Below are positions 2,335-63,759 of a stretch of DNA of 64,000 bases, piece by piece. The stretch is from Thalassia testudinum (lineage: Eukaryota > Streptophyta > Magnoliopsida > Alismatales > Hydrocharitaceae): positions 930,001 through 994,000 of the forward strand of contig JAZHRO010000062.1 of NCBI GenBank assembly GCA_037157565.1, written 5' to 3'. Every line of letters begins with the position of its first letter. Positions within the stretch are counted from its first letter, which is position 1. Under the pieces are notes generated by a model. That model worked only from the letters and a program-made list of their open reading frames with translations. It searched no databases and was not told where the DNA came from. Both the position numbers and the translations under genes were made by a program.

Positions 2335-3792
2335 TGTTGGAACCTAGTTCCGCCTCTCTTCTGTGTTTTGGTGTTAACAAAACCATTGTAAAATCTAATG
2401 TGTTTATGAAGTATTATAGGTTAAAAGAATCTGTGGATGCAAGCAACAAGATAGCATATGAAGAAAGAAGACTAGTTTTTGTTGTATTCATTGTATTTTA
2501 GAATCTTTATGTGTCTCCTAACAAGTAAAACATGATCTAGGAGTTAAAATCAAAGTAGAGATAATTAGGGTTCAGAATATCGTTCATTCATTCGTTTTAA
2601 AACTCAAATTCAATTCTTTCAAAATAAAGTCGTATAGAGTAGATGGGATAACTCTAAAAATTGACAGACACTTATAACATTAGGTACTTGTGGCAAGTAC
2701 CCGTATTGGTCATAAGTACTGGTACTGGTCATAAGTATCGGTACATGCTAGGCACAGGTTTAGGCTTAAGTCCCAAACTGTGAATAATGTTGGACCCTAG
2801 TTCAATCTCTCTTCTGTGTTTTTGTGTTAACAAAACCGTTTTAAAATCTAATATGTCTATGAAGTAATTTCAGGTCAAAAGAATTTTTGGATGCAAGCAA
2901 AAAGATTGCACATGAAGAAGTTTTGAAGATTTTAGTTTTTATTGTAACTTAGAATTTTTGTATGTCTCCAAACAAGTAAAACATAATCTAGGTGTTAAAA
3001 TCAAAGTAGAGATAACTAGGTTTCAGAATATCGTTCATTTACTCGGCTCTTAACTCAAAATCGACTCTTTCAAAACAAAGTCGCCTAGAGTAGATTGCAT
3101 TTCTCTAATTGATTTACACTAATGATCTTTGGTACTTACTTGGCACAGGTTTGGACCTAAGTTCCAAACTGTGAACATCAAGTACCGGTACTCATCATGA
3201 GTACCGATATCAAGTGGTCATAGTTTGTGAACTGGGTTTTTTCCTGGACCTTACAAGTACCGGTACTCATCATGAGTATCGGTACATGTAGGTCACAGGA
3301 GCGTCACAAGTACCGGTACCCAGTGATTTGGTTGTACTGACTGTATGCAGTCAGTACTGGTACCAAGAGTTCAGTACCGGTACCAACTAACCGTTGTGAC
3401 CAGTATGAACGGCTAGTTTGCAATTAATCATATTTCTAATGTTCCTAAAATACCCCTAATGGCTAGAATTCGTGGGAGAGGTGATTAATGGCCTATATAA
3501 GCACTCTTTGAGTGTTGTTTTATACACATCTCTAAAAAAGAATCATACTCTTGCCTACACCTTTAATTCTCAATTTTCAAGCTGAAAGAGAGTTTGTTTT
3601 GTTGCATATCTTTCAAGGCCTCTCACCATTTGCAACAAATCATCAAAGGCGATCGTGTTTTTCTGTATTCAATCGTTTGTTTTACACCTTAGTTTTTCTT
3701 GTTAGATTTGGTTATACTTGCTATAAGATATATTCTTGTTGGAGACTCAGGAAATAGTTGCAAGCTTCTACTTACATTTTGCTTACACCTGT
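2335..3792 (+). repeat. Element A 5' LTR, first part, with a duplicated head
   Basis: Starts TGTTGGAACC. The first 453 bp (2,335-2,787) closely match the start of A's own 3' LTR at 24,221. At 2,788 a second, clearly more diverged LTR start (TGTTGGACCC) begins and runs into the rest of the LTR. So the head of the LTR is present twice, and the LTR (about 1.72 kb without insertions) is longer than its 3' partner (about 1.32 kb). Clusters of the palindrome GTACCGGTAC and variants lie at about 2,683-2,743 and 3,180-3,390, upstream of the TATA box. The Tekay element interrupts it after CCTGT. Confidence 0.85.
3494..3500 (+). promoter_or_regulatory. TATA box of element A 5' LTR
   Basis: TATATAA about 100 bp downstream of the last GTACCGGTAC copy. 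The 3' LTR has the same box in the same context at 26,666-26,672, which supports a real U3 promoter. The transcription start itself cannot be seen. Confidence 0.65.
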
Positions 3793-6485
3793 TGTTACGA
3801 ACGCGTGCCCCAGACGTCTTTTAAGACATCTGGGAGGTGGCCCAGACGTCGGACAAGACGTCTGGGATCACATCCAGACGTCTGGGATCGTTTCCAGACG
3901 TCTGGAAATCAGTTATTTTCGACACGCGCGGGTCGTCTGCGCGCCTGAGTGCGCAGACCGCATATTCGCTTATTCTTCCCTCTGCAGCTGCAGATGCCGC
4001 TGCCGAGCTCCCTCTCTCTCCTCCTCGCGCGGCCTCAAAAGACCACGCCTCCCCTCGCTTCCGTCGCCTCCACCCCTTCCCTCTTCTTCTTCCAGTGAGC
4101 GAGCGCGAGAGCGGACGCGGGGTTGCTGCGGCGGCGACGGCCGCAGTGAGCGCGGAGGGGGTGCTGCGTGCGAGAGCGGCGCTCAGCCGTGAGGGCGAGC
4201 TCGCCGGGGCTGCCAGGGCCGGCCGGCGGGGAGCGCAGCGGGCGCAGAACGATGCAGGAGGCCTGCTGCGGCTTGACCAGCAGGCGCACGAGGTGCGACG
4301 TGGGCGGCGTCGCGAGCGGAGGGCGAGTCGCGCCCTGGTTCTGGAAAAATTTCCAGAATCAAACATCTGTGCTGATAGCCAGACGGTGAGGTCGACGTCT
4401 GGAAGACTGTCCAGATGTCTGAAAGGTGAGTTTTCCGTCTTCTTCTTCCTTCTTGTCGACTGACCGTACTGAGAGAGGGAGATGGGTGTGCGCAGGCTCG
4501 GTGATTCGCCATCCAACACGAATCAGACGTCTGGCTGTAGTACCAGACGGCGGGAGTGACCTCCAGACGTCCGGGGTGACCGTCGGACGACTGGAAACTA
4601 GGTCAGATGTCCCCGCAGGCTTCTGGACGTCTGAGAAACCACGCAGAACGAGCTAATTCTCTGATCCACTTTTTAAGACGTCTGGAAGAAGTTCCAGACG
4701 TCTGATTTTGCATAGTGTCGTCATTTTCGACCTGTTTAGGGCCCGTTCGGGTTTCGTTTTCCGCGATTCGAGTTGCGTTCTTTTCGGAATTAATTCCTCT
4801 ACCCGTCTACAGTAGCTATCCACTGTTTTGAGATACTCCTTGTGTTTGATCCTTGTGATAGGACCCTGTTCTGTTGCAGTCTCGGGGGTCGCGGAGGCAC
4901 GCGGGATTCCCGACCACGCCCCCATTTCTCCCGTTGTACTTGGTAGAGTGGCTTTAAGTTATTAATAAAATCTGTTAAATTATGGAACCATAAATAGAAC
5001 CTAGGACATTGCATGAATCCTAGGAATGAGAAATAGATGGAATGATAGCTCCTAGGTGTTGCATGAATCCTAGAGCTGGAAAACTAGATTGTATGATAGA
5101 TCCTAGGATATGGCATGAATCCTAGGATGGGAAAACTAGTGGAATGTATAATACTGCAGTCTTGGAAAATGGAAAGAGATATAAAGCTGCCTGTAATTTG
5201 AATTAACAGCTGCCTGTTGTGAATAAATAACGTGGTTGAGAACATGGATTGTAAGAATGTGAAACTGGAAAGTGAAACCTGGATGTTTGAGTAAAAAGGA
5301 TGGAACCCTACGAGGAAGTAGGAGTAGAACTCCTGGAAAGTGAATGGAATAGTATTGGGGAAGTGAGCTGGCCCTTGAGTACGGAGTACCAAGGAGAGCG
5401 ACTGTCCCCCTGTTTAGTGCAGAGCGGAGCCGGCAGCCCCAGGGACCCGGGGTTAGGATTGGCCACTCTGTACCGACTTGCTGGCCCTCGCGTACGTAGT
5501 ACCGAGGAGAGCTACTTGTGTAGGGAGGTACTAGCTACCCCACGGGCCCCGGGGTTCTGCTAGCCTCCCACACCGACTTATTAGGCCCGCTGGGGCAAAC
5601 CAGGGTAGTCAGGCGAGGGTGCGCGGACTGTGGAGGGGCAAGGCCCCGGTTTGGTTACTGTGGAGGGGTTGGACCCCTGTTACTGAGAGGGCTCTGCCCT
5701 GGACTGGTTCCGTGCTGTGCTTTGGGCGCACCCGTTAACGGAAACGACTGACCACGTGCCAGTACGGGTTAGCTACCTGTGCGTTTATCGCGCGTGCCGT
5801 AGTCACCGTTACGTCTGTCAGTGACCTTGGGGTGGTTGACTGAGGGTAGGATCACCACGGGGGACTCTCCCGACCAGGAGAGCACCACGTGCTACTTCTA
5901 CTTTTTGGAAAAGACTGCAATCAAGATCGTTCCCACGAGGAACATTCGAGATCAAGAAAAAGATCTGAGGAATAAATGAAATAGTGAGACAATTGAAAGA
6001 TGTGAATAAAGAAAGTAATCGAACATAACAGCTACTGTACACTCTACTGTTGTCTTTAGTTTAGTTGCCACTCTACTCAGCGTTTTGCTGACGTGTTACA
6101 CTCGTTACCCTTTTCAGGACCAGGTGTTGAGCATCCAGGGTCAGCGGCTGCAGAGGACGCTGGGCCGAGTAGGGTCCAGTAGAGTTACCATTGTCTCTTG
6201 TACCTCTTTTTGTTACGTTGTAGTGAGTAGTTCTTGTTTCCGCTGTACTTTCTTTACCTGCAGTTCAAATTATATTATGAATGTTGTTCTACTGTTGTGG
6301 TGGTACATACTGTGGTAGTTTCTTTCCTTACTGCTGTACTTTCTTACTGTTAGTTATATTCATGCTGAATGTGGTTTATTTTACTGCTCTTTTGGTTACT
6401 TCCTCGTTGGACGACTAGGTCTTGGGATTAGTTGAGTCGGTCCGGTTCTCGTGTCTCGTAGGGACTCAGGAACCGGGTCGTTACA
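3793..6485 (+). repeat. Tekay-like 5' LTR
   Basis: 2,693 bp, TG..CA. Near the start (3,813-3,905) and again at 4,374-4,706 are clusters of CAGACGTCTG-type palindromes. A TATAAAG box at 5,180-5,186 is the best promoter candidate. The stretch at 4,000-4,350 is GC-rich and gives long open frames on both strands; these contain no recognisable domain and I do not treat them as genes. Against the 3' LTR, the first 540 bp differ far more than the remaining 2.1 kb. Confidence 0.93.
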
Positions 6486-6488
6486 AGA

Positions 6489-6667: not shown

Positions 6668-7812
6668 ATGCCTCATCGCGAGAGTAGTGAGGCTGGCTGC
6701 GGGCGCGGCCGAGGAGGAGGTCGACGAGGTGGACGTGCTGTTGTTGACGTCTCGGTGGACCAGCCACCACTCCCGGGCATCCAGGCCCAGGACCTCACAA
6801 GACTGATACGGGACATTGTACGAGATGAGCTCCACCCACCGCCCTGAGCACCTCCTCCTGGGGCTGCAGAGGGGGAGTCCTCTGTGGGACCACGCGACGG
6901 ACACGGCGCTGGACACGAGGGAGGGGATGGGCCGCTGCCGCCCCCACCTTCCTCCGACACTTCTGTACACGAGGTACCTTCGCCTGGAGGTGCACCAGCA
7001 CCTCCCCTACAGCGCCACTTCGAGCATTTCGGACAGTTCCGGAAGCTGAAGCCCCCCTCCTTCAAGGGGGATGAGGACCCGACCGAGGCAGAGGACTGAC
7101 TTGAGCAGCTGGAGAAGATCTTTGACACCCTTCGCCCCCCGGTGGAGTGCCGCGTGGCCTTTGCCACGTACCAGCTGGAGAGTGCAGCACACAGGTGGTG
7201 GAGGGCGGTCCGGGGACAGGAGAGGGACGAGCCGACGTGGGACCAGTTCGTCACCCTCTTCTGCGAGCAGTACTTTCCCCAGACGTAGCAAGACCAGAGG
7301 AGGCGGGAGTTCCACACTCTCCGCCAAGGGACGATGACTATGAGCACGTACCCACGCGTTTCTTGGAGCTGTCCCGCTTTGCAACGACAGCGGTAGCCAC
7401 TGAGGAGGAGCACCTTTGGAGGTTCACCGAGGGGCTCCGGCCTGCGATCCGGGGGTATGTCAAACCCTGAAGTTGCCTACGTTTTCGAGGGTGGTAGAGG
7501 TAGCTATGACTTACGAGGAGACCAACCCGTCCGCGCGAGACACCGACGGGGGGCGGAAGAGGCCCTTCCAGCCAGACTTTTCACAGGGTCGGCGAGAACG
7601 GAGACACGTGGCGTCCGCAGGAGAGCCGTCACGTTTTACAGGGCCATCAGTGGCCTTTAGGGGCCCTCGACAGGGGCCAGTCGCCAGCACCGGACCCCCG
7701 CCCAGCCGACAGCAAGGACCCACTAAGGGCGGGAGCCGGGTTCCCCTCTGTTACCAGTGTGGCCAGCCAGGCCACATCAGGAGGGACTGCCCGTCTAGGG
7801 CAGGAGGTCAGT
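6668..7812 (+). pseudogene. gag: Tekay-like gag, broken
   Basis: Structural protein that would coat the element's RNA in the cytoplasmic particle. The ATG at 6,668 starts an Arg/Gly-rich N-terminus and is followed by a retrotransposon gag core (around 7,040-7,460, with the W-rich segment ending in the RRWW-like block near 7,195). A C-terminal zinc knuckle of the CX2CX4HX4C type lies at about 7,747-7,790. In-frame stops are at 6,845, 7,097 (probably a former Trp codon), 7,266 and 7,468, and there are frame changes near 7,335 and after 7,470. The long minus-strand frame across 6,673-7,413 is a shadow of this GC-rich gene. Confidence 0.85.
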
Positions 7813-8772
7813 AGATACTTCCCGCGCAGAGCACTGAAGGACGCGCAGGAGGCCGTGGTTCCCAAGCGCGAGGAGGAGGACAGCAGTCGCGAGGAGGGTA
7901 CCGGCCAGCACCTACCCGTCCGACACAGTGTGGCTACTTCGTCCGCACCTAGAGCTGAAGGGCGTATCAACGCCTTGACACACAGGGACGCCAGAGCTTC
8001 GGGATCGGTGGTAGCAGGTATGGTTTCAGTTTCCGACAGACTCGTTTACACGCTTTTCGATTCCGGCGCTACGCACTCGTTTGTCGCAGCCAGTTTCGCA
8101 GTTAGTTTGGATCGGGATTATACACTGTTAGAGAATCCTTTCGTAATCAGAGGTTCGAGTGGTCAGCTGTTTGTAGTTGAGGAGGTGTACACGGATTGCG
8201 AGGTCAGTGTCGGGGGACATAGCCTGCCAGCTGACCTGATTATGATACAGATGGAGGACTTTGGAGTAATTCTGGGGATGGATTGGCTGTCCGCTTACCA
8301 CGCCTTGGTGGACTGTTTTGAGATCGTCTTCTCCATTCTGGAGTTGCCTTCTTTCGAGTTTCACGGACAGCCAGTGGACGGAGGTTTCAGGTGCATTTCG
8401 GCACTTCGGGCGGCGAGACTTTTGAGCCAGGGGTGTGAGGGCTTCCTAGCTTGTGTGGTGGCAGAGCCCAGCCCTGTGGTAGACTTCCAGAGCATCCCGG
8501 TGGTCAAAGAGTACCCTGACGTGTTTCCAGATGAGTTACCAGGACTACCGCCCGAGCGTGAGATCGAGTTTGAGATCTCACTAGTACCAGAGACCAGCCC
8601 CATCTCCACAGCGCCAAACAGGATGGCACCGCTTGAGCTGCGAGAGCTCAAGTCACAATTGCAGGACCTTCTGGAGAAGGGTTTCGTGAGGCCCAGTGCG
8701 TCTCCTTGGGGAGCCCCGGTACTGTTTGTGAAGAAGAAGGATGGGACCTTACGCCTTTGTGTGGACTACTGA
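7759..8772 (+). pseudogene. pol: Tekay-like protease and start of reverse transcriptase
   Basis: Retropepsin-type aspartic protease with the active site D-S-G at 8,059-8,067 (context [10 protein letters not shown]) and the second conserved ILGMDWL block near 8,275. A linker follows, then the N-terminal fingers of reverse transcriptase with [13 protein letters not shown]. The frame then ends at a TGA (8,770-8,772) where the family normally has Arg in a Y-R-x-L-N motif; CGA to TGA is the simplest explanation. The frame is open from 7,759 but overlaps the zinc knuckle frame, so this part was probably joined to gag by a frame change. Confidence 0.85.
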
Positions 8773-10080
8773 CAGCTGAACAGGGTCACCATCAAGAACA
8801 GATATCCGCTGCCGAGGATCGACGATTTGTTTGACCAGTTGCGGGGTGCCACGGTGTTTTCCAAGATAGACTTGAGGTCTGGATACCACCAGTTGAGGAT
8901 CAGGGAGACCGACGTCTCCAAGACAGCTTTCCGCACCCGGTACGGACACTACGAGTTTTTGGTCATGCCGTTTGGGCTGACCAATGCCCCCGCTGCTTTC
9001 ATGGACCTGATGAACCGGGTGTTTAGACCGTACTTGGACCAGTTCGTGGTGGTTTTCATAGATGATGTACTCATCTATTCTAGAGATCGGATGCAGCACG
9101 GACAGCACTTGCGGATGGTACTGGATACTCTGAGATGACGCCGGCTGCACGCCAAATACAGCAAGTGCGAGTTCTGGTTGAGGGAGGTGACCTTCCTAGG
9201 TCATGTGATCTCTGGAGACGGCTTGGCGGTGGACCCAGCCAAGGTCGAGGCAGTGCTCAGGTGGGAGAGACCGCGTTTAGTCACTGAGATCGTAGTTTTC
9301 TGGGACTGGCAGGCTACTACAGATGATTCATCAGAGGATTTTCGCAGATTGCGCGTCCTATGACACAGTTGACCCGGAAGGACGTGCCTTTCGCTTGGAC
9401 AGACGCCTGTGAGGCGTGTTTTCTGGAGCTGAAGGAGAGGTTGACCTCGGCTCTCGTGCTCACCACCCCTGACAGTAGTGGCCGGTTCGTTGTGTACACG
9501 GATGCCTCCTTGCAGGGGTTAGGAGGTGTGCTCATGCAGAGGGGTCACATGGTCGCTTACGCTTCGCGGCAACTGAAGCCCCATGAGCATACCTACCCTA
9601 CCCACGACCTAGAGTTGGCAGCTGTTGTCTTCGCGCTGAAGACTTGGAGGCACTACTTGTATGGTGAGACCTTCAAGATTTTCACAGATCACAAGAGCCT
9701 CAGATATCTTTTTGACCAGAAGGAGCTCAACATGAGACAGAGATGTTGGTTGGAGCTCCTGAAGGACTACGACTGCAGCATCTCCTACCACCCGGGAAAG
9801 GCCAATGTGGTGGCTGACGCCTTGAGCCGTAAGGCACCCGCACGCTTGGCCAGTCTACAGTTACAGAGTTGGAGCCTTTTGGAGGAGGTGGGCAGATGGC
9901 GACCTCTAGAGTTACGAGGGTACTGTGGGGCAGTGACTGTGACACGGCAGACTAGGCCAGAGCTGATGGACCGCATCATCACAGGACAGATGGCCAATCC
10001 GTACTTGCAGTCTTTGCGCGACAGAGTACTGTCAGGAGACCCAAGGGATTTCTCTTTCACAGACCAGGTGCTATGCTTGA
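8773..10080 (+). pseudogene. pol: Tekay-like reverse transcriptase and RNase H, broken
   Basis: Copies the element RNA into DNA. Palm motifs are readable: [11 protein letters not shown] near 8,860, the [10 protein letters not shown] block near 8,965, and the catalytic F-I-D-D at 9,055-9,066 (F before IDD is normal in chromoviruses). A TGA lies at 9,136-9,138 and a frame change near 9,290-9,330. RNase H follows, with its first catalytic Asp at 9,501-9,503 (VYTDAS), the [13 protein letters not shown] block and the TDHKSL block near 9,690. The frame from 9,360 to 10,280 is open, so RNase H itself looks intact in sequence. Confidence 0.85.
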
Positions 10081-11459
10081 GGGGACGGTTGTGCGTTCCC
10101 AGAGACGAGGAGCTGTTTAGAGAGCTCCTGACTGAGGCACACGGTTCTAGATTCACCATACATCCCGGAAACACGAAAATGTACCACGACTTGAGATGCG
10201 AGTTTTGGTGGAGAGGGATGAAGCGGGATGTGGGTGAGTTCGTGCAGCAATGCTTAGTGTACCAGCAGGTGAAAGCCTAGCATCAGAGGCCTGCAGGGCT
10301 GCTTCAGCCGCTTCCAGTGCCAGAGTGGAAGTGGGAGAGCATCACCATGGACTTGGTGGTGGGCTTACCTGTTACCCAGCGGAGACACGACGCAGTCTGG
10401 GTAATAGTGGATAGACTGACGAAGATGGCGCGATTCTTGCTGATCCGAGTCACTTTGGGACCAGCACAGTTGGCAGAGAGGTATATCCGTGATGTGGTAC
10501 GACTACACGGAGTTCCGCGGGAAATCGTATCCGACCGGGATACCCGCTTTACGTCCCAGTTTTGGGCGGAGTTTCAGTAGGCCTTGGGGACGAGGTTGAG
10601 GTTTAGCACGGCTTACCACCCCCAGACGGACGAACAGTCTGAGCGCACGATACAAACACTTGAGGACCTTTTGCGTGCCTGTATACTGGACTGGAGGGGC
10701 TCTTGGGAGGAGCACCTGCCCCTGGCAGAATTTGCATACAACAACAGTTATCACTCGAGCATCGGCATGGCTCCCTACGAGGCTCTATACGGACGGAAGT
10801 GTATGGCACCCTTGAGTTGGGTTGAGGTGGGGACCAAGTGGGAGGTTGGCCCCAGGTTGATCCGGCAGAGTCAGGAGGTAGTCGAGCAGATCCACAGATG
10901 ACTCTGCACTGTCAGGAGTAGACAGAAGAGCTACGCGGATCGGAGACGCAGAGAGGTGCAGTTTGAGGTTGGGGACCACGTCTTCCTTCGTGTCTCGCCC
11001 ATGAAGGGCTTACAGCGGTTTGGGGTGAGAGGGAAGCTCGCGCCGAGGTTTGTGGGGCCCTTTGAGGTCCTGGAGCGGGTTGGACCCGTTGCTTATCGGC
11101 TTGCCCTTCCCCCGCAGCTTTCTGATGTGCACGACGTGTTCCACGTGTCCAACCTCAGGAAGTACGTAGCCGATTCCAGTCATGTACTGAGTCACGAGAG
11201 CGTTGAGGTGGGCGACGACCTGACCTACCCCGAGCGGCCAGTGCAGATCCTAGACCGAGCCATCCGCAGTTTGAGACGAAAGCAAGTACCCCTGGTAAAG
11301 GTTTTGTGGAGAAGCCAGCGGTACGAGGAGGCTACCTGGGATCCTGAGGCGGCAATGCGGGAGCGGTACCCAAAGCTTCTCGCAGGTACGTCTTTCGGAC
11401 CGGCTTCGGTCCTCTTTGAGTTTGTTATGGTTAATTGGACATCTTTTCCCTTACCCTAG
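10081..11459 (+). pseudogene. pol: Tekay-like integrase with chromodomain, broken
   Basis: Would join the DNA copy to the host chromosome. The N-terminal HHCC zinc site is damaged: the last Cys is Tyr (CLVYQQ, near 10,250-10,264). A TAG follows at 10,278-10,280. The catalytic core shows Asp in TMDLV (near 10,348), Asp in SDRDTRF (near 10,530) and Glu in QSERTIQ (near 10,640). Stops fall at 10,578 (TAG, probably a former Gln codon) and 10,899 (TGA). The C-terminus has a GPFEVLERVG-type block, then a chromodomain-like segment at about 11,240-11,385 ending in EEATWDPE. Chromodomains guide such integrases to marked chromatin (established for chromoviruses). Confidence 0.87.
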
Positions 11460-11504: not shown

Positions 11505-14210
11505 TGTTACGAACGCGTGCCCCAGACGTCTTTTAAGACTTCTGGGAGGTGGCCCATACGTCGGACAAGACGTCTGGGATCACATCCAGACGTCTTACCA
11601 GACGTCTGGGATTGTTTCTAGACATCTGGAAATCAATTATTTTCGACACGCGCGGGTCGTCTGCGCGCCTGAGCACGCAGAACGCATATTCTCTTATTCT
11701 TCTCTCTGCGGCTGCAGACGCCGCTACCGTGCTCCCTCTCTCTCCTCCTCACGCGGCCTTAAAAAGACCACGCCTCCCCTCGCTTCCGTCGCCTCCACCC
11801 CTTTCCTCTTCTTCTTCCAGTGAGCGAGCGTGAGAGCGGGCGCGGGGTTGCTGCGGCGGCGACGGCCGCAGTGAGCGCGGAGGGGGTGCTGCGTGTGAGA
11901 GCGGCGCTCAGCCGTGAGGGCGAGCTCGCTGGGGCTGCCAGGGCCGGCCGGCGGGGAGCGCAGCGGGCGTGGAATGACGCGGGAGGCCTGTTGCAGCTCG
12001 AGCAGCAGGCGCACGAGGTGCGACGCGGGTGGCGTCGCGAGCGGAGGGCGAGTCGCGCCCTGGTTCTGGAAAAATTTCCAGAATCAAACATCTGTGCTGA
12101 TAGCCAGACGGCGAGGTCGACGTCTGGAAGACTGTCCAGACGTCTGAAAGGTGAGTTTTCCGTCTTCTTCTTCCTTCTTGTCGACTGACCGTACTGAGAG
12201 AGGGAGATGGGTGTGCGCAGGCTCGGTGATTCGCCATCCAACACGAATCAAACGTCTGGCTGTAGTACCAGACGGCGGGAGTGACCTCCAGACGTCCGGG
12301 GTGACCGTCGGACGACTGGAAACTAGGTCAGATGTCCCCGCAGGCTTCTGGACGTCTGAGAAACCACGCAGAACGAGCTAATTCTCTGATCCACTTTTTA
12401 AGACGTCTGGAAGAAGTTCCAGACGTCTGATTTTGCATAGTGTCGTCGTTTTCAACCCGTTTAGGGCCCGTTCGGGTTTCGTTTTCTGCGATTCGAGTTG
12501 CGTTCTTTTCGGAATTAATTCCTCTACCCGTCTACAGTAGCTATGCACTGTTTTGAGATACTCCTTGTGTTTGATCCTTGTGATAGGACCCCGTTCTGTT
12601 GCAGTCTCGGGGGTCGCGGAGGCACGCGGGATTCCCGACCACGCCCCCATTTCTCCCGTTGTACCTGGTAGAGTGGCTTTAAGTTATTAATAAAATCTGT
12701 TAAATTATGGAACCATAAATAGAACCTAGGACATTGCATGAATCCTAGGAATGAGAAATAGATGGAATGATAGCTCCTAGGTGTTGCATGAATCCTAGGG
12801 CTGGAAAACTAGATTGTATGATAGATCCTAGGATATGGCATGAATCCTAGGATGGGAAAACTAGTGGAATGTATAATACTGCAGTCTTGGAAAATGGAAA
12901 GAGATATAAAGCTGCCTGTAATTTGAATTAACAGCTGCCTGTTGTGAATAAATAACGTGGTTGAGAACATGGATTGTAAGAATGTGAAACTGGAAAGTGA
13001 AACCTGGATGTTTGAGTAAAAAGGATGGAACCCTACGGGAAAGTAGGAGTAGAACTCCTGGAAAGTGAATGGAATAGTATTGGGGAAGTGAGCTGGCCCT
13101 TGAGTACGGAGTACCAAGGAGAGCGACTGTCCCCCTGTTTAGTGCAGAGCGGAGCCGGCAGCCCCAGGGACCCGGGGTTAGGATTGGCCACTCTGTACCG
13201 ACTTGCTGGCCCTCGCGTACGTAGTACCGAGGAGAGCTACTTGTGTAGGGAGGTACTAGCTACCCCACGGGCCCCGGGGTTCTGCTAGCCTCCCACACCG
13301 ACTTATTAGGCCCGCTGGGGCAAACCAGGGTAGTCAGGCGAGGGTGCGCGGACTGTGGAGGGGCAAGGCCCCGGTTTGGTTACTGTGGAGGGGTTGGACC
13401 CCTGTTACTGAGAGGGCTCTGCCCTGGACTGGTTCCGTGCTGTGCTTTGGGCGCACCCGTTAACGGAAACGACTGACCACGTGCCAGTACGGGTTAGCTA
13501 CCTGTGCGTTTATCGCGCGTGCCGTAGTCACCGTTACGTCTGTCAGTGACCTTGGGGTGGTTGACTGAGGGTAGGATCACCACGGGGGACTCTCCCGACC
13601 AGGAGAGCACCACGTGCTACTTCTACTTTTTGGAAAAGACTGCAATCAAGATCGTTCCCACGAGGAACATTCGAGATCAAGAAAAAGATCTGAGGAATAA
13701 ATGAAATAGTGAGACAATTGAAAGATGTGAATAAAGAAAGTAATCGAACATAACAGCTACTGTACACTCTACTGTTGTCTTTAGTTTAGTTGCCACTCTA
13801 CTCAGCGTTTTGCTGACGTGTTACACTCGTTACCCTTTTCAGGACCAGGTGTTGAGCAGCCAGGGTCAGCGGCTGCAGAGGACGCTGGGCCGAGTAGGGT
13901 CCAGTAGAGTTACCACTGTCTCTTGTACCTCTTTTTGTTACGTTGTAGTGAGTAGTTCTTGTTTCCGCTGTACTTTCTTTACCTGCAGTTCAAATTATAT
14001 TATGAATGTTGTTCTACTGTTGTGGTGGTACATACTGTGGTAGTTTCTTTCCTTACTGCTGTACTTTCTTACTGTTAGTTATATTCATGCTGAATGTGAT
14101 TTATTTTACTGCTCTTTTGGTGACTTCCTCGTTGGACGACTAGGTCTTGGGATTAGTTTAGTCGATCCGGTTCTCGTGTCTCGTAGGGACTCGGGAACCG
14201 GGTCGTTACA
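11505..14210 (+). repeat. Tekay-like 3' LTR
   Basis: 2,706 bp, the same ends as the 5' LTR, followed by the CCTGT duplication. It is 13 bp longer than the 5' LTR because it has one extra palindromic unit near 11,594-11,607. The usual purine-rich tract before a 3' LTR is missing; instead the LTR is preceded by CTTTGAGTTTGTTAT, which also occurs at 11,413-11,427. Confidence 0.93.
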
Positions 14211-22212: not shown

Positions 22213-22363
22213 CAGGTACCAGATGGTACCGGTACTAGTTGGGCGTAGCAGTGCCTGCTTTAGTGAGTAGGTACCGGTACTGATTATGAATACCGGTACT
22301 AGCTCGAATTTCTGGTTGGAATAGAAACCAACCAATACCGGTACCAATCACTAGTACCGGTAC
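22213..22363. repeat. GTACCGGTAC palindrome cluster inside element A
   Basis: Several exact or near-exact copies (for example near 22,226, 22,271 and 22,354), in the non-coding gap between RNase H and the third ORF. This is the same palindrome that fills A's LTRs, yet the flanking text is not LTR sequence. Confidence 0.85.
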
Positions 22364-38992: not shown

Positions 38993-38994
38993 TT

Positions 38995-39006
38995 TGGTAT
39001 CAGAGC
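38995..39006 (+). other. Element B primer binding site
   Basis: TGGTATCAGAGC, initiator tRNA-Met type, two bases after the LTR. Confidence 0.95.
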
Positions 39007-39045
39007 AGGTTCTTGCTAATCGGAGTAACACCCGGCAAGAAGATC

Positions 39046-41099: not shown

Positions 41100-42821
41100 T
41101 GTTGGTGCTAGAGCACCACGATCATTTGTTTTGATGATAACAAAATACGTGTCATTTAACATTTGCACTTGGAGTCTTAGATTTCAGGTCAAATTGCAAA
41201 TGGAGACGTGATTAGACGGAATTCGAGCTCGCATCCAGGACGGATTGGAGGAGCTTGATGGAGAACAGAGAAGATTCGCAAGGAGCGATAGATTGAAGAT
41301 GGAAGGACAAAAAGAATAGGATAGAATTTTGTTTATTTCTTTCATGTACTTTTGTCTTTATTTCCTTGCTCTTTTTATTCCTTAGAACATCTTGTTAAAG
41401 AGCATCAAAGTACCCTAACAGTAGTCCTAGGAACACCTGCACAACCCTAGGATACTTAGGTTTTCTGTAGAAAACTTAGAAAACCAATATAGGATTCAGA
41501 CAGCCTTTTCAGACGTCTAATTCCAAAATTAGACGTCTGATAATGAGTTTTAAGACGTCTGACTGTTGATTCAGATGTCTGATAACATTTAGGCTGGACT
41601 TGCTAGCTCTGTCTGATGAAATCAGATGTCCAGACCTTAGTCCAGACATCTTAGAAGACGTCTGATGGACTTGCCAGACGTCCAATTAGTGGATCGTTGG
41701 CTGGCTTAACAAACACTGAAGGATATGACCGTTAGAGCCTTATCAGACGTCCTTAAGCCTTTCCAGACGTCTGATAAATGACCGTTTTGCCTCGGCTGAC
41801 CCAAAATCTCTTCTCAGAGATTTTCTAGCCGTTGCACTCTCTTGGAAATCCATTCCCACGAAAAAGTAGGTTTCCAGACGTCCAGACATAGTGCCAGACG
41901 TCCTGTATGTCGTCTGATGGACTTGCACTAGAACCCTGTTTAGATCTGATTCAAGTCAGGAAGAAACCCGCTTAAAATCAGACGTCTGATGTTGTTCCCA
42001 GACGTCTTAAAGTGATCTTCCAGACATCTGATGCTAGGATCAGACGTCTGATAACCCTGTCAGTACAATCATTGTTCCTGATTTCGGCCTGATTCTCTTG
42101 GGCTTTGCACCCAACGGCTATGGAAGCTTTCCAAAGCCTTCCAAAGCTTTCCTAAGGCCTCTATAAATAGAGAGGAACCTCTTACACACATATACACACT
42201 AGAGACACCTAGACACACCAAGAACAAGCATTTCCACTCTTTTGTGTCCAAAAAGAATCTCTTGCTCTCCAAACTCAAGTTCTACATCTTGAGAGCATCA
42301 AGCCTTCGCGCACCCACTCTCCCGTCGTAGTTCACAAGAGTGACGTTGCGCCGTCACGTGGCTCACGCACCCGCGTCATCGATTCGACGCACTCCTTACA
42401 AAGGGGAGTTTCCTAATTCCTATAGAAGCTAGGTTTAAATCTTTGTTGGCTCTATAGGATTATATTTGTCATTTTACTTTGTTATTTGGTTGGGTATTCG
42501 CTTTGCGAATTCCTGTCTCCTTCGTGGGACAAAATCCTTCTCGTGAAGAGAAGGGGTTTGAGGTATGCTACCCTCGTATAAAGTAGCGTGGTTGTAATTG
42601 AGGTTGAATCACCCTCGTTTAAGTGATTCGTTTAGTGGATTTGATCAACTTGGTTGATCGGAAAATCCTAACTCGAGAGGGTTAGGTGGTGGTTTTCACC
42701 CGATTTGGGTTTCCACCTAAAAATTATTGTGTACATTGTGTGATTGATTTTTTGTGAGATTGTTTATATTATATTCCGCAATTTATTACGTCACCCCCTC
42801 ATGGTAGGGTCGAATTCTACA
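41100..42821 (+). repeat. Element B 3' LTR
   Basis: 1,722 bp, the same ends as the 5' LTR. Palindrome cluster at 41,509-42,060; TATAAATA at 42,162-42,169. Differences from the 5' LTR are mostly single transitions, several at the central CpG of palindrome units. Confidence 0.94.
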
Positions 42822-52884: not shown

Positions 52885-52887
52885 AAA

Positions 52888-56496: not shown

Positions 56497-58735
56497 TGAT
56501 AAACGCCAGTTTATCATCATTCTTATGCATTAAAACAAACCTAGCTCTTAGGATTTTGCTCTGCAAATGGGTTTTTGGGCTACATTTAGGCATTAATTAG
56601 GTTAGGCATGCATTACACCTTTTATTATCTTTTTAATGTGTTTTTGTGAGTGTTAAGGATATACAGATTGCCAGATCCCTAGAACCCTAGCACTTAGGAA
56701 GGCAACTGGTGAAGGAGAAGCTCTCACCAACTGGAACTCAACTTGATCCAGCTCACCATAGCTGGAATTCAGCTCACCTAAACTAGGGTTAGCTCATCCT
56801 AGCTCCATTCAGCTCATCTCAACTGAATGGCAGCTTAAGAGAGCTCATCTTAGCTCACCCTAGCTCAGGTCAACTCAGATCCAGCTCAACTTACTTAAGT
56901 CTAGCTCATCTCAGCTCCCATTAGTCCATAGGGAGCTCTAACTAGCTCAGCTGAGTTGACTGGAGTTCACCCCAGCTCAGGTTCAACTACATCCAGCTCC
57001 ACTCAACTCCAGCTAGCTGAAGATGACTTCATTTTAGCTCAGGAAGCTCAAGTCCAGCTCCCGGGGATTCAGCTTAGCTCAACTCAGTTGAGCTAAGCTA
57101 CCTTAACTGCCTCAACTAACTTGATCCTCCCCAGGAGCACCAGACCCAGCTCACCTCAACTCATTATGGTAGAAGCCAGCTCACTTTAGCTTGGCTTAGC
57201 AACTAGTAAAGAACTAGCAAGCTAAGCCAGCTAGAGTAGCTCCATGCCACCCTCTTCAGCAACTGCCAACTCTAGCTCAAGCTCCAGACTTCTCCTCCTC
57301 AACTCCTCTCTTCAAACCCTAGCTCACATTACCTACTCCTCTACTCCATATCTAGCTAAGCTACCTTAGCTTAGCTCAGCTTAGCTAGCATCCAACTCCT
57401 TGGCCATCCTCCACCTTCAACTCAACCCTAGCTAGCTCCACCAACTAAGCTTACCTAGTCCACCTAAGCTACCTAAACCTCTACTCTATTTTGGTGCCAA
57501 AATAGACACCTCTTATCCCCTCAACTACACCCAAAAGGCACCTTATTTTGGCACCAAAATAACCTTCTAGAAGCCCTCCCTTTTGGCGCTAAAACACCCC
57601 CACATCATGGACCTACACCTAACCCTACAACCTATCCTAGCCATCCACTTAACCCCCCTTCTAGAAGCCTTCCAAAACCAAGGCACCTCTCCATGGTTGG
57701 CACCACCTTTAGGTGCCTCTCCACCACCATAACTACCACCTTCACATCCCCCCACTTGGCGCCAACCATTCTCCACTATAAGATCACCTAACCACCTCCT
57801 AAAAGCCATCCTAGCCCTACGCTTCATCTCCACCATAACCACCACCTTCCACCTCTATAAAAACCCATCACCTACCACCATTTTCATCATCCTCCCATTA
57901 GATAATTTCCACCTTACTTCCACCTAAACCTACAGCCAAGAAGAAGGAGTAGAGAAGAAGATTAGGGGGGCACATCACCCGCCCCATTTGGTGCCTTCTT
58001 CTCCCCATTCCTTCCCTTTGTGCCATGCCAAGAAGGAGGAGGATCTTCACCACCAGGAGGACAGCTAGGCAAGGAGAAGAAAGGGTGGTGCACGTCCACC
58101 CTTGAAGGAGATCATTAAAGGCGGTAGCTTCCACCTTGGAGGACACCATCTTGGAGGAGCATAGCAAGGAAGGAGAAGGAGGAGCCCTTTTCAAGCCTAG
58201 CCACTAAGCTTGGAGCAAGGAGCTTCACCACTTCACCATCTTCATCAACTAGGACTTTTGTTTCACTTGTTTTATATTTTCATTGTTGTCATAAGCTTTC
58301 CTCTACTAGTGTAGAACAAGAGTCTGATTTTTTATAAAGTTGCTTTCCTAATCTAGTGCATTTTATTATCTACTTTAGTTTTGTTTTAGGACTTTCACAC
58401 CCTCTTCTCAATTATCCTAGGCCTTCACTTGCCTACAGTGAGCTTGGGAAGAGGTTACTTTGCCACCTAGTTGCTAAAGTAGGTTTTGTCTTTTCCACCA
58501 CCAATTTTCTATTGCCTTATTAAATTCAAAACCCTAAAAAATGATACATTGAAAAAGACCAAAAGGAAAGTTGATTTCCATTTCCAAGCAAGGGATTTGA
58601 TTTGCAAACAATTTGGCCTCCTTGGACGACCCTAGATACCCCACTATCTAGGTTACAAATTTTAAAAGCGAACGGATTTATGATTTACAGCGACTTAAAA
58701 CCCTAATCTTAAAAACTACGTAATTTTCCGCATCA
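56497..58735 (+). mobile_element. Solo LTR F
   Basis: 2,239 bp, TGATAAACGCCAG at the start and TTTTCCGCATCA at the end. Flanks are GTAGG and GCAGG, a duplication with one change. A TATAAAAA box is at 57,856-57,863. It contains an AGCTCA-rich region (about 56,720-57,380) and TTTTGGYGCCAAAA palindromes (57,487-57,780). The start resembles E's LTR start, so a gypsy relative is likely. Confidence 0.8.
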
Positions 58736-59786: not shown

Positions 59787-59801
59787 CCCACTTTGATACC
59801 A
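59787..59801 (-). other. Element I primer binding site, altered
   Basis: On minus: TGGTATCAAAGTGGG, initiator tRNA-Met type with one change in the core (CAAAG for CAGAG). Confidence 0.8.
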
Positions 59802-59803
59802 AA

Positions 59804-62513
59804 TGAGTTTAGCACATGAAGGGGGTGATTTGTGCTTGAAAAGAAAATAATAATAATTAAAATCACACTGCTAATTCAAACTACAATAGAGACAAGTATT
59901 TAGAGAGGAAACTCAAACTAGGAAAAACCTCTACCTAGTTATCCTCTGTTTAGGATTTTGCCCTTGATTAAGCAAGAATCATTGACCACATCACAAATCT
60001 AAGGATGGTGTACCTCTAGTACAACTTCACTTCTTGGACAACCCCAAGAAGTATTTTGTTCCCCTTCTTCAAAGAAGAATAGAAAGCCTACAATCTAGGT
60101 TCCCAACTTTACATAAAAATTTGAAATAAAATGAACAAGTCATATAGAGCCAATAATATATTTAGTGAATGTACATGCAATTAGGACTTGAAACTTTCCT
60201 TTTTTTTTTAATTATAAAAGTAAAGTACTAAGGAAGAGAAATACAAAAGCTCTTCATAAGTGAGAATAAGTAGTTAAGCACTTTATGAACACTTATAAAT
60301 CTCAGGAGAGTTAAAACATATGAGAAAGTGAGAGTAGGTAGTGTGTCTAGGTTCTAAACCGTCACAGGGTATTTATATATAGACCATGATTAGAGGTCTA
60401 GTAACCATAAAAAAATAGAATGAAAACACTTAAATTCAAAGTGAAAATGTGCGATTTTGAAAAGCCAAAATGTAGAATAATGCATCATGAGATGCATTTT
60501 GCAACGCACAGACGTGGCATACCTATGCAACATACTTTTGCACCAATGGAAAATGATTTTGGATGATTTTGACTAGTGCAAAGTGATTTTGCCATGGTGC
60601 AAATGATTCTGGGTGACTTTGCACCGATGCAAAGTAGTGTAAGTACCTCTGTTTTGATGAAATAAAATTATGTTTTATTGTGTACTAATCTTTCAGGATC
60701 ACGCTCGCATAAATCAAGTCAATTATCCTCCGCATGGATCAAAGTGAAGATTATCTTTAGTCAATGTAATTCTTTTATATTTCTTGAGTCTAGAATGACC
60801 GTAAGGAACCTCAAGATTAAAGACAAACCTTTCTAAATCATAAAATAAACATCTAGATAGTATTGATCAACCAATTTAGCCTAACAGTCCAATCCGATTT
60901 TCCCGTAATTGATCGATAATTAAATATTTGATCAATCAGCAATTATTCGACCAATCAAGTTAATTGATCGACCAAAATGAAAATTGATCGACCAATTTGG
61001 TTTGAATGATTTTTCTCAACATTCTAAGAATGCTCCATTTTCACCCATAAATAGGGCTCCACACCCCTCATTTCAAAACACACTTTCAAAGAGAAATCCA
61101 TATAGAAAACTTCTCTCGTGCATTCTCTCCAAGTGCTTCTACGCTTCTATTTTTCATGCTCTCCAAAGCACGTCAATTCGAACCTCTGCAAAAATTTGAT
61201 TTGACTTTCCTTAAGGTTCCATAGGATTATATTATTTTATTTTACTTGTTGCTTTGATTACGGATTCCAAGTTGTTGGGAGAAATCCATTATTGTTGTTG
61301 TTTTTACTTCTCTTCAGGATAAAAAAAGAAGTGGTTTGTAAGAGGTTGTGCCACCCTCGTTCAAGTGGTACATTAGTGGATTGACTAGGTTGCCTAGTCG
61401 GGAAAATCCTAAGCTAGGAGGCTTAGGTAATGGCTTTTACTCGGGAAGGGTTTCCACTATAAATCTGTGTATATTGTGTGATTGTTTTTTTTGTGCCATA
61501 TTTTTACAATTGATATCACTCTTGATCTTGTGTTTGTGGCTAAGTAAGATCCGCAGGTGCACCTCTCAAGTAGTTCTACACTGATGCAAAATGGTCATGG
61601 AATGATTTTACACTAGTGCTGGTGCAAAATAGTTCTACACCGGTGCAAAATTGCACTGGTTTATCATGTCAATGCATTGCAAAATGTGTCAACTTTTGCA
61701 TTTTTGTACCACATCCATTTGAAAAGTTGGAAACAGTTCAAAAATCTCTGAAATTAATTTATTAACACTCATATTAGCCAATCAATGTACTATAGTTAAT
61801 CAATTAATGAAGGAAAATTTGATCAATTAATTTCTGCACATCATAGTTTAACCCAAAACACAAACTTACAAAATTAATCGATTAACAGACTTTGTTAATC
61901 GATTAACCTTATTCCAGGAACTTCCTGATTAGGCCTTTAATAGTTTGATAGATAGCTTGAATCGATTAAGGCTCTTTTCAAACTTGAAATTAATTGATTA
62001 ATCATTTTTCTTAATTGATTAATCATTTTTCTTAATTGATTAATTAGCCATTTTAGACATTGGAAAATTTGAATCGAGTGCCTTTTCACGAAGGGGTGTT
62101 TTTAAACCTAGAACTAACCTTCTAGATGAACCACAACGTTCTTAGTCAATTTATTTTGAATTATTTTGAATTTAAATTGATTTTCTAAATATTTTCCTAA
62201 GAAATGCCATATGTATGAATGAAATACAATTGGCTCTCTAGCAAACTTTTAGAAATATAAAAATTACAAGACTTTCCTTGAAGCTCTTCTTGAAGTTCAT
62301 TTTGAAGCTCCCTTTTTGAATTAATCTTCATTTGCCTTCCAATTAAGCTAAACCATACATGTGTCATTGTGTAAGTAACTCTTTATGCATCATCATCATA
62401 GTATAGCTTTTCCGTATCAATTTAAGTTTTGCATTGTGAAGTTAAGCTAATCTAAAGAATAATCCTTATTTTGTTAACATCAAAATTAGGTTAATTAGTG
62501 CTTTGCACTAACA
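59804..62513 (-). repeat. Element I 5' LTR, reversed, holding solo LTR H
   Basis: About 1.77 kb without the insert. On minus it starts TGTTAGTGC, has TTGATGTTAACAAAA like other SIRE-type LTRs here, and ends next to the primer site. The minus TATA box is at 60,371-60,381. Upstream of it (to the right) are clusters of TTTGCACCGGTGCAAA-type units (60,480-60,635 and 61,570-61,690) and TTAATCGATTAA units (61,760-62,050). Confidence 0.82.
60638..61568 (+). mobile_element. Solo LTR H
   Basis: 931 bp, TGTAAGTACC to GCACCTCTCA, between exact AGTAG duplications (60,633-60,637 and 61,569-61,573). The phrases CTGTTTTGATGAAATAAAA and TTTCACTCGGG-like text resemble copia LTRs here. TTGATCGACCAA-type units lie at 60,900-60,990, and a CATAAATA box at 61,046-61,053 follows them. 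Confidence 0.88.
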
Positions 62514-63759
62514 AACAAAATATACAAAAATCCTATAGAGCCACAATATGAAATGTAAATGCTAGCTCCTATAGGTCAAGGAAACTTCCCTTTGATGGAA
62601 GCGGATGGACGTGTAGGTGCAGCGAATCAATGCTCTCAAATGTAGAGTGATGAGCTTGGAGAGTAGCTAGACAATTTCTCTCTTTGAATCTCTCTTTGTG
62701 TATAAGGTGGGAAGAATTGTATCTAAGGTGTGTCTAATAATGGTAAGCCTCTAGATTATTTATAGAGATGTTAGGAAGGCATTAAACTACTTGGGAGAGA
62801 TCTTACAACCTTTGAGAGTGATTTGGGACATTAACTCTCAAAAGCAAGACAGATTGCACAAAGATTTGCAACTATGAGAACAATATTAGATGTCTAGTAG
62901 AGTGATATGACGTTTGATTTGTCAAGTCAGACATCTGAATAGAATGGGCAGAGGTTTGAAAGAATGGACTCCAAAAGGTTGTCAACATGAACTTGCCTAG
63001 GGGACATCTAATCAAGTGATCATACGACTTAAATGGTATTATCAAACATCTGACCAAATCATTGGCCGTCCATTACTATAATCAAGTCTTTCTTGGATTT
63101 GGGTCTGATGTGAAGTCGTACATCTAGTCTTAATGTTGGTCCTCTAATAGGACATTTGATCTTATGGTTGGACATCTAATGTTGAAATCATCTTAGGATT
63201 TTGGCTTTTAACATAATATCTTCCTCAATTTTGGTTTACAATATTTAACAGGCAACTAAGAGTCATTTAGTAGTGTTATTGGACATTTAAGAAACCTATG
63301 GGACGTCTGTTGATAAGGCTAGATGCCTGATTACCTAAGGTGAACATAACGATTAGATCAAAAAAGGTCTAGAGAAATAATCAATCATCTGAAAATGGAT
63401 TTTCAAACATCCAACAAGAATATAAGATGTCTGATAAGGCAATATATTTGTTGTTTTGTATTTCTATTTTGATTCTAAGTTTTGCCTAAGTATTCTAAGG
63501 TTAAGTAAGTGTGTTTAGGACTTAGGTTATCATACTCGGTCTCTTTACAACATATATAAATAAGGAAAGACAAAAATATATTAAAAGAATAACAAAATCT
63601 AAACTACAAACTTCAAACTCCTCCTTCTTCTGGCTTCCTCAGCTTCTTGCTTCCATGCTTTGGCTTCTTGTTGCTGAAATGTTAATCTTCAAAGGGCAGT
63701 ATAACAGTTATACATTTGTTATCATCAAAATCAAATACTATGCTACTTATGCACCAACA
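62514..63759 (-). mobile_element. B-family-like LTR, reversed and truncated
   Basis: The right end reads GCACCAACA, and the minus start resembles the B family (TGTTGGTGC, then a TTTTGATGATAACAAA phrase). The left part, which would be the LTR end, is missing: LTR I abuts it at 62,513. Degenerate CAGACGTCTG units lie at 62,888-63,435, most with changes at the CpG, so this copy looks old or belongs to a sister family. Confidence 0.72.

What the first reader, a model, noticed from the sequence alone, without database searches (positions are those of the whole stretch)
2335..63759. Unrelated LTR families each carry a cluster of their own palindrome, all with CpG at the centre
Seen: CAGACGTCTG in the B-family LTRs (25,525-26,030; 27,368-27,897; 37,682-38,225; 41,509-42,060) and in the Tekay-like LTRs; GTACCGGTAC in A-family LTRs; TTGATCGACCAA-type in H; TTTGCACCGGTGCAAA-type and TTAATCGATTAA in LTR I; TTTTGGYGCCAAAA in F. 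Each unit is a 10-16 bp palindrome whose middle two bases are CG, or decay products TG/CA. In most families the cluster lies just upstream of the TATA box. Different sequences with the same design in copia and gypsy families suggest repeated origin under one pressure. Candidates are protein sites whose binding depends on CpG methylation, or signals in the RNA or chromatin. Established: GACGTC is a bZIP core and GTAC an SBP-box core. The link to function is inference.
Basis: partly seen in the sequence, partly recalled or inferred. Interest (0 to 1): 0.9.

Follow-up and report, generated by a model that had tools for sequence, protein, structure and literature searches.

The report
Phased palindrome arrays in retrotransposon promoters
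Several families of plant jumping genes carry, upstream of their start signal, rows of short mirror-symmetric DNA words centred on CG, mostly about two helix turns apart and better kept than the DNA around them; this looks like a docking array for a paired DNA-binding protein, a design known from one group of such elements and here also seen in a distant second group.

Summary
Of 137 units, 100 have a CG centre and 29 have TG/CA. Units lie upstream of a TATA-like box. The core is known: Bousios et al. 2010 (PMC2829016) described palindromic repeated motifs in Sirevirus LTRs, upstream of TATA and before env. A and B here are of that kind, and A repeats its word before its env-position ORFs. Not found in what I read: (1) B's word CAGACGTCTG also fills the U3 of a gypsy Del/Tekay element and occurs 455,398 times in the 4.26-Gb genome, against 2,620 for the reversed word; (2) neighbour spacings in the main arrays favour 19-23 bp and a 10.5-11 bp period, though weaker arrays fit less well; (3) arms diverge 2-4 times more slowly than the DNA between units in B and Tekay, while central CpGs decay; (4) the words are gapless, unlike 10 of 13 published motifs. 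Best reading: enhancer arrays for dimeric DNA-binding proteins, perhaps methylation-sensitive. The protein is unknown. A new variant of a known kind.

The parts
3182..3383 (+). A-family LTR (2788-3786): 7 GTACCGGTAC units upstream of TATATAAG at about 3494
2697..2744 (+). Truncated A LTR (2335-2787): 3 units at 19-bp steps; no TATA in the fragment
22226..22363 (+). A element: 5 GTACCGGTAC units (steps 45, 19, 45, 19) about 100 bp before the env-position ORF at 22461
   Evidence: same layout in L007
22461..23820 (+). Env-position ORFs of A (22461-22997, 23131-23820); no transmembrane-type stretch, acidic second ORF
24585..24743 (+). A 3' LTR (24221-24804), 5 units; continues beyond the B1 insertion
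26438..26555 (+). A 3' LTR continued (26434-26958), 4 units, TATATAAG at about 26666
32815..33120 (-). E, diverged A-like LTR: 9 units alternating 19 and 53-56 bp, TATA-like at about 32685
3811..4704 (+). Tekay 5' LTR (about 3793-6487): 17 CAGACGTCTG-type units (up to 2 mismatches) in two groups flanking a GC-rich stretch
11523..12429 (+). Tekay 3' LTR (about 11506-14211): 18 units
7759..11459 (+). Tekay gypsy ORFs scanned (7759-8772, 9360-10280, 10956-11459): protease, RNase H, integrase zinc domain, chromodomain (23.8 bits, cut-off 25.1)
25527..26026 (-). B1 LTR (24805-26433): 14 CAGACGTCTG-type units, TATA at about 25415
27370..27892 (+). B2 LTR (26959-28638): 12 units, TATA at about 28004
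37683..38223 (+). B3, 5' LTR of B element (37273-38993): 16 units
39013..40206 (+). B gag ORF (copia gag and zinc knuckle)
40824..41097 (+). B linker: 7 copies of AGGGGGAG, the last followed by AT/TG of the 3' LTR (Sirevirus signature)
41510..42050 (+). B4, 3' LTR of B element (41100-42822): 15 units
57489..57765 (+). F LTR (about 56498-58735): three TTTTGGYGCCAAAA-type units and a TTGGCGCCAA at 57756-57765, TATA-like at about 57856
60863..60995 (+). H LTR (about 60652-61560): TTGATCGACCAA-type units, TATA-like at about 61046
61754..62043 (-). I LTR (62510 to 59830, H nested inside): TTAATCRATTAA units, commonest step 21 bp
60537..61649 (-). I LTR: second, weaker palindrome (TTTGCAYYGGTGCAAA type, up to 5 mismatches), on both sides of the H insertion
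1921..2180 (-). C, LTR-like region with TTAATCGATTAA-type units (two 21 bp apart), TATA-like at about 1634
62928..63433 (-). J, B-like LTR (63760 to 62511) with 5 decayed units

Best explanation
Each cluster is the U3 enhancer of an LTR promoter, built as an array of dyad-symmetric sites for a dimeric DNA-binding protein, most likely a host transcription factor that differs between families. Dimers sit on the same face of the helix, usually two turns apart, and together drive the TATA promoter downstream (in A perhaps also a promoter for the extra ORF). The central CpG is the part exposed to silencing: methylation there would block or change binding, and in silent copies it decays to TG/CA. 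Shown: arrays, position, arm conservation, CpG decay, and phasing in the main arrays. Inferred: the protein, activation, methylation sensitivity. This is the Sirevirus repeated-motif design in a gapless CG-centred form, also present in a gypsy Del/Tekay element.
For: Unbiased recovery of the words. Units upstream of a TATA-like box; none in the 2.1-kb internal region of B and 4 loose hits in 5.0 kb of Tekay internal. Leave-one-out over four B LTRs (two of them the LTR pair of one element): non-CpG unit sites differ in 32 of 1,152 comparisons (2.8%), against 466 of 4,206 (11.1%) between units and 1,478 of 12,298 (12.0%) elsewhere. Four Tekay LTRs: non-CpG arm sites 109 of 1,199 (9.1%) against 1,575 of 5,737 (27.5%) between units. 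A env-side cluster, gaps left out: 4 of 50 unit sites differ against 61 of 288 outside. Spacing in one copy per array of A, E, Tekay, B, H, I and C: of 54 neighbour spacings of 11-70 bp, 33 are 19-23 and none are 13-18 or 24-31; cosine resultant 0.52 at 10.5 bp, P 0.0001, and P 0.0046 with the 19-23 class removed. Ten-bp spacers in B4 are 29% alike on average, so their fixed length is not just recent tandem copying. Spacing modes 20/12 and 19/45 recur in independent genome stretches.
Against: No binding, expression or methylation data. TF matches (GACGTC with bZIP, GGCGCC with E2F, GTAC with SBP) are recalled, not tested; no one factor fits all words. Spacings left out fit less well: 8 (Tekay), 15 (a loose H unit), 30, 30, 38 (second word of I), 35, 57 (F); with the distinct ones added the resultant falls to 0.29 (P 0.0077). 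The null is uniform and spacings within a family are not independent. Against the rest of the LTR the Tekay arms are little or not better kept (12.6% in four copies; in the three closest copies arms 9.1%, between 20.2%, rest 7.4%). In A/E the contrast is weaker (15.4%, 24.5%, 30.1%). Spacers are more alike in Tekay (42%) and A/E (63%), so duplication played a part there. RNA folding is strong and spacers keep some self-symmetry (51 of 134 pairs after trimming two bases a side, expected 36). Which TATA-like string is the real one was judged by eye; in H, I and J others lie above the units.
Confidence: 0.6

Rival explanations
1. The arrays act as RNA: units in the transcribed 3' LTR (and before the extra ORF of A) pair with each other into hairpins, which serve the element or feed host small-RNA silencing.
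For: 14 of 16 tested clusters or cluster parts fold with z below the lowest of 7 controls (clusters -1.3 to -9.2, controls -0.3 to -2.3). Maize Sirevirus palindromes are small-RNA hot spots with strong predicted structure (passages of PMC10760457 and PMC5311732 citing Bousios 2016, which I could not read). Spacers keep slight symmetry.
Against: A hairpin needs two complementary arms, not a palindrome in every unit with no loop; the CG-centred words are gapless. Any array of repeated palindromes folds well, so the z-scores do not separate the models. Helical phasing is expected for DNA, not RNA. The H and B2(a) stretches fold weakly.
Confidence: 0.15
2. Element-encoded factor: each family makes a protein that binds its own word and lifts silencing, as VANC proteins do with tandemly repeated motifs in Arabidopsis VANDAL elements.
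For: Family-specific words in non-coding arrays, as in VANDAL21 (abstract and one section of PMC5735166). The extra ORFs of A have no transmembrane-type stretch (largest 19-residue hydropathy 0.92 and 0.34) and the second is acidic, unlike an envelope.
Against: B shows only a gag ORF of 150 aa or more, and the three Tekay ORFs scanned show only pol-type domains, so the same word exists without such an ORF, unless served in trans. No homologue of the first A ORF at E 0.001; its best Pfam hit is PF20167 at E 0.028, 14.7 bits against a cut-off of 45.
Confidence: 0.08
3. Mutational by-product: short tandem duplication spread one palindrome in each LTR and nothing reads it.
For: Some arrays are plain tandem repeats (period 21 at 61,990-62,044, 2.6 copies, 100% match). 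Spacers are alike in A/E (63%) and partly in Tekay (42%). H, C and F arrays are small.
Against: Arms diverge more slowly than the DNA between units in B and Tekay; fixed-length spacers in B4 are nearly unrelated (29%); the repeated words are palindromic and CG-centred far beyond chance.
Confidence: 0.05
4. On the shared word: Tekay took its CAGACGTCTG array from a Sirevirus like B (for example by template switching) rather than evolving it.
For: Same 10-bp word and same 20- and 12-bp steps in B and Tekay. Three of 18 comparisons, all with B in reverse orientation, beat nearly all spacer-shuffled controls (0.7%, 1.3% and 1.3% of 150 shuffles reach the score).
Against: The other 15 of 18 lie within the shuffled range (5% or more reach the score), and the 18 are not independent. 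Flanks differ (CCAGACGTCTGG against TCAGACGTCTGA).
Confidence: 0.3

Closest known systems
Sirevirus LTR repeated motifs (RM boxes), Bousios et al. 2010, PMC2829016 (abstract, Results parts 1 and 2 of 3, one Discussion section read)
   Same: Many copies of a family-specific palindrome in the upper half of the LTR, a short way upstream of TATA; extra copies before env where an env-like ORF exists (A) and none where it does not (B). Three published words share their middle 4-8 bp with words here: Usier GTCGGACGTCCGAC (GACGTC, as B/Tekay), Vitis CGGTCGACCG (TCGA, as H), Tnd-1 ACAATCGATTGT (AATCGATT, as I and C).
   Different: 12 of 13 published motifs have a CGG-CCG core and, by my reading of Table 3, 10 of 13 have bases between the half-sites or another centre; here no repeated CGG-CCG dyad was found and the words are gapless and CG-centred. 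The paper calls the motif Sirevirus-specific among copia; here a gypsy element has such an array. Spacing was not analysed in the parts I read.
Palindromic cis-regions of maize Sireviruses, Bousios et al. 2016 (not held; seen only as cited in PMC10760457 and PMC5311732)
   Same: Palindrome clusters in the LTR regulatory region, linked there to small RNAs.
   Different: Nothing on phasing or on gypsy elements in the passages seen; the paper itself was not read.
Del (= Tekay) LTRs with 5' CpG islands, Cruz et al. 2014, PMC4029996 (abstract, three sections and a term search seen)
   Same: Large LTR of a gypsy chromovirus with a CpG-rich, fast-changing 5' part; matches the window's Tekay LTR (CpG o/e 1.1, GC 0.71 at 3916-4340).
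   Different: No occurrence of palindrom, repeated motif or tandem in the text; here that region is flanked by two palindrome arrays whose arms change less than their surroundings.
VANC target motifs of Arabidopsis VANDAL elements, Hosaka et al. 2017, PMC5735166 (abstract and one section read)
   Same: Short family-specific words in non-coding tandem arrays that change quickly between related elements.
   Different: Different class of element; words such as YAGTATTAC are not palindromes; read by an element-encoded protein.

Membership tests
Sirevirus (copia): elements A and B | Copia-type gag | tested here: met
   Retrotran_gag_2 E 7.8e-32 (A) and 2.4e-23 (B)
Sirevirus (copia): element B | Multiple AGGGGGAG tracts, the last followed by AT/TG of the 3' LTR | tested here: met
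   7 copies, junction exact
Sirevirus (copia): element A | Multiple AGGGGGAG tracts, the last followed by AT/TG of the 3' LTR | tested here: inconclusive
   One exact copy (24107); the terminal tract reads AAGGGAGAG, AT/TG kept
Sirevirus (copia): elements A and B | RT phylogeny | not tested
   No RT tree was made
Sirevirus RM boxes | High-copy palindrome in upper LTR, upstream of TATA | tested here: met
Sirevirus RM boxes | CGG-CCG core | tested here: not met
   one search finds no repeated CGG-CCG dyad (5-bp arms, gaps 0-6, at least 4 copies per kb with 2 exact); the published exception Tnd-1 also lacks it
Sirevirus RM boxes | Extra units before env, only in env-bearing elements | tested here: met
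   A: 5 units before ORF 22461; B: 0 in 2,106 bp internal; cluster also in L007. That the A ORFs are env homologues was not shown
Sirevirus RM boxes | Units form a CpG island | tested here: inconclusive
   CpG density raised in A, H and Tekay clusters over their flanks, not in B relative to the part after TATA
Sirevirus RM boxes | Restricted to Sireviruses | tested here: not met
   Gypsy Tekay LTRs carry 17 and 18 units; three sampled Tekay LTRs too
Del/Tekay (gypsy chromovirus) | Gypsy-type protease, RNase H and integrase | tested here: met
   RVP_2, RT_RNaseH, Integrase_H2C2
Del/Tekay (gypsy chromovirus) | Chromodomain after integrase | tested here: inconclusive
   Chromo 23.8 bits, cut-off 25.1
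Del/Tekay (gypsy chromovirus) | LTR of 1.1-4.8 kb with 5' CpG island | tested here: met
   About 2.7 kb; CpG o/e 1.1; no CpG-island program was run, and the published cluster A lacks the island
Del/Tekay (gypsy chromovirus) | RT-RNaseH phylogeny | not tested
VANC-type anti-silencing target | Element-encoded protein binds the repeated motif and removes methylation | not testable with these tools
   No binding or methylation data

The most novel reading that the evidence does not exclude
Gapless, CG-centred dyads set on a two-turn helical phase are a common address code of plant LTR promoters that crosses the copia-gypsy divide: a methyl-CpG-sensitive dimer that binds cooperatively at 19-22 bp spacing reads them, families differ only in the outer letters, and the gypsy Tekay lineage of this genome has adopted the very address of a Sirevirus, so that both respond to one activator and one silencing switch.
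Probability: 0.22. Interest if true: 0.8.

Novelty: new variant of a known kind. Interest (0 to 1): 0.52.

Why it matters
What sets off and what silences the LTR families of large plant genomes is mostly unknown (general knowledge). Here a conserved 8-10 bp dyad with preferred spacing gives a concrete bait: 455,398 copies of one word in one genome, shared by a copia and a gypsy family. If one protein reads it, two unrelated families answer to one control, and the CpG at its centre would be the place where methylation acts. It also carries the 2010 Sirevirus observation beyond Sireviruses and adds a spacing rule that can be tested with reporter constructs.

Tried and rejected
Rejected: chance; plain tandem duplication as the whole account; the idea that every such array is CG-centred. 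Undecided: spacer homology of B and Tekay. Homologues of the first A env-position ORF: none at E 0.001 among 12 and 1,561 candidates. E2F word in papers: one unrelated paper listed. Gypsy arrays in print: the six-term search listed only PMC2829016; the chromovirus search listed 12 papers, the Tekay search 21, of which 10 were shown, the Sirevirus-CpG-island search 7. Of these I opened PMC2829016, PMC6911290 (palindromes at insertion sites), PMC11963269 (only a reference title), PMC3414828 (an identifier code) and PMC4029996; the rest were seen as listings. Searches added nothing further on this point. Genome-wide counts of GTACCGGTAC, CAGATGTCTG and the 20-bp doublet were not obtained.

Limits: the genome sample is 20 stretches of 10 kb. 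It held arrays of Tekay type (4 loci, L016 only partly aligned) and of A (1 locus) and did not test the other families; 'most families of the genome' is untested. In that sample repeated palindromes at 4 or more copies were 14 AT-, 17 TA-, 4 GC- and 4 CG-centred words, most from AT-rich arrays, and shuffled tiles also gave words of 4-14 copies. Counts include both LTRs of one element, leave out F, J and the second word of I, and drop units within 8 bp of a region's edge. LTR families without arrays (D near 547-1248, G near 42822-43588) were judged by eye.

Full report
What was checked. To avoid choosing words by eye I tested 1,016 ten-bp palindromes (all but the simplest repeats) in 127 overlapping 1-kb tiles. 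Outside the AT array at 46-47 kb the words with four or more copies (one mismatch allowed) were CAGACGTCTG, its variant AAGACGTCTT, GTACCGGTAC, TTGGCGCCAA, TGATCGATCA and TAATCGATTA, plus ATTTTAAAAT near 24 kb and four AT- or TA-centred words over the I array; the best word in a shuffled tile had 1 copy in 63 tiles, 2 in 59, 3 in 4 and 4 in 1. At five or more copies all 14 palindromic positions are CG-centred, at four or more 19 of 21, against 15 of 73 unrepeated palindromes. Allowing a gap of 0 to 6 bases between half-sites adds only extensions or overlaps of these words and the AGCT arrays of the F LTR.

What the elements are. The window is a nest of LTR elements. A is a copia element with a Retrotran_gag_2 gag, a TATCAGAGC primer site, env-position ORFs at 22461-23820 and LTRs at 2788 and 24221. 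B is a gag-only relative (37273-42822) with seven AGGGGGAG tracts and the exact AGGGGGAG-AT-TG junction of Sireviruses, plus two further LTR copies. H, I, J, C and F are LTRs or LTR-like regions for which I found no coding part; the 3' part of H's LTR matches that of B at 74-77%.

Anatomy. Units lie upstream of the TATA-like box that I take as the promoter: about 110 bp in A2, A3 and the four B copies, 50 bp in H, 130-165 bp in E, I and J, about 285 in C; in F 90 bp from the TTGGCGCCAA at 57756 and 260 from the others; in Tekay about 285 or 475 bp, depending on which weak TATA-like string is meant. In H, I and J other TATA-like strings lie above the units, and one loose C unit (3 mismatches) lies below its TATA. 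A repeats its word in front of its env-position ORF (22226-22363), as does the copy in L007; B's internal region has none. Of 137 units of A, E, Tekay, B, H, I and C, 100 have CG at the centre, 29 TG or CA and 8 something else (sums over; F, J and the second word of I not counted).

Selection. In four B LTRs (two are one element's pair), with units defined in one copy and differences counted among the other three, non-CpG unit positions differ in 2.8% of comparisons, positions between units in 11.1%, the rest of the LTR in 12.0%; CpG positions inside units differ in 25%. Per unit position, A2, A4 and T7 never differ, while the central C and G differ in 18% and 26%, mostly as C/T and A/G. In four Tekay LTRs (window, L011, L012, L004) non-CpG arm sites differ in 9.1% against 27.5% between units, the rest of the LTR being at 12.6%; in the three closest copies the figures are 9.1%, 20.2% and 7.4%. 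[quoted passage not shown] In A/E the contrast is 15.4%, 24.5% and 30.1%. Before A's extra ORF 4 of 50 unit positions differ between the two copies, outside 61 of 288, gaps left out.

Spacing. Neighbouring centres are most often 19 (A, E), 20 (B, Tekay), 20-21 (H) and 21 bp (I, C) apart, with 12, 32, 42-45 and 51-56 as others. In one copy per array, of 54 spacings of 11-70 bp, 33 lie at 19-23 and none at 13-18 or 24-31. The cosine resultant peaks at 10.5-11 bp (0.52 at 10.5, P 0.0001 against uniform spacings; 0.38, P 0.0046 without the 19-23 class). Against this: an overlapping 8-bp step in Tekay, a 15-bp step to a loose H unit, 30, 30 and 38 bp in the second word of I and 35 and 57 in F; with the distinct left-out values added the resultant is 0.29, P 0.0077, still highest near 11. 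Ten-bp spacers share 29% identity in B4, 42% in Tekay, and the 9-bp ones 63% in A/E. In independent stretches CAGACGTCTG again has 20 (14 of 32 spacings up to 130 bp) and 12 (5 of 32), and GTACCGGTAC 19 (5 of 11).

Genome. The window lies in a 4.26-Gb assembly; CAGACGTCTG occurs 455,398 times, its reversed form 2,620 times. In 20 stretches of 10 kb CAGACGTCTG clusters occur in four (three with Tekay LTRs aligned over the cluster, L016 only near it) and GTACCGGTAC in one; repeated words with other centres also occur (CTCAGCTGAG, CTTAGCTAAG, ATCCTAGGAT, AAGCTAGCTT, ACCCTAGGGT, GTACTAGTAC, besides AT-rich arrays). So the design is common but not the only repeated palindrome.

Known before. Bousios et al. 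2010 (PMC2829016) described family-specific palindromic repeated motifs in 13 of 21 Sireviruses, upstream of TATA and before env, with a CGG-CCG core in 12. By my reading of their Table 3 three of the 13 are gapless and CG-centred (Vitis, Usier, Tnd-1), and each shares its middle 4-8 bp with a word here. Later work tied maize Sirevirus palindromes to small RNAs (passages in PMC10760457 and PMC5311732). Del/Tekay LTRs are known for variable 5' CpG islands (PMC4029996), with no occurrence of 'palindrom' in the text. I found no report of such arrays in gypsy elements in searches, which cover open-licence papers only and of which I opened five papers.

Mechanism. Conserved arms, gapless dyads, phasing of the main arrays and position make an array of dimer-binding sites in an enhancer the best account (0.6). 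A hairpin role in RNA is not excluded: 14 of 16 tested stretches fold better than every control and spacers keep slight symmetry; but a hairpin does not need each unit to be a palindrome, nor phasing. The decay at the central CpG suggests the sites were methylated in silent copies (inference from mutation type), which fits, but does not show, methylation-controlled binding. The shared word of B and Tekay may be convergence or capture (3 of 18 comparisons hint at shared spacers; cannot tell).

Verdict. Real, functional-looking, and an extension of a known Sirevirus feature: a gapless CG-centred, mostly helically phased variant that also lives in a gypsy lineage.

Noticed in passing
22461-23820: The env-position ORFs of A have no hydrophobic stretch of membrane type and the second ends in an acidic run and a basic tail; the first hits PF20167 only at E 0.028. 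Looks more like a nuclear protein than an envelope.
   Followed up: partly
36920-37272 / 42822-43588 and 56195-56498 / 58794-59573: Two copies of one element (G) seem to carry independent insertions, B and F, within roughly 60 bp of the same place (coordinates).
   Followed up: no
3916-4340: GC-rich (0.71), CpG-rich stretch between the two Tekay palindrome groups, open in long frames on both strands (ORFs 3837-4463 + and 3821-4519 -).
   Followed up: no
4994-5146 and 12719-12871: 51-bp tandem repeat in the Tekay LTR with CCTAGG palindromes (TA-centred), downstream of the CG-centred arrays.
   Followed up: no
20570-20615: Isolated B-type doublet (AAGACGTCTG and, about 20 bp on, a decayed unit) inside the pol region of A; origin unclear.
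   Followed up: no
59830-62510: LTR I holds two different palindromes, TTAATCRATTAA and a TTTGCAYYGGTGCAAA type, in separate parts of one U3.
   Followed up: partly
L016:4865-5711: CAGACGTCTG array near a Tekay-like LTR part (3151-4257); the array stretch itself does not align to the window. Whether it belongs to that LTR was not checked.
   Followed up: no
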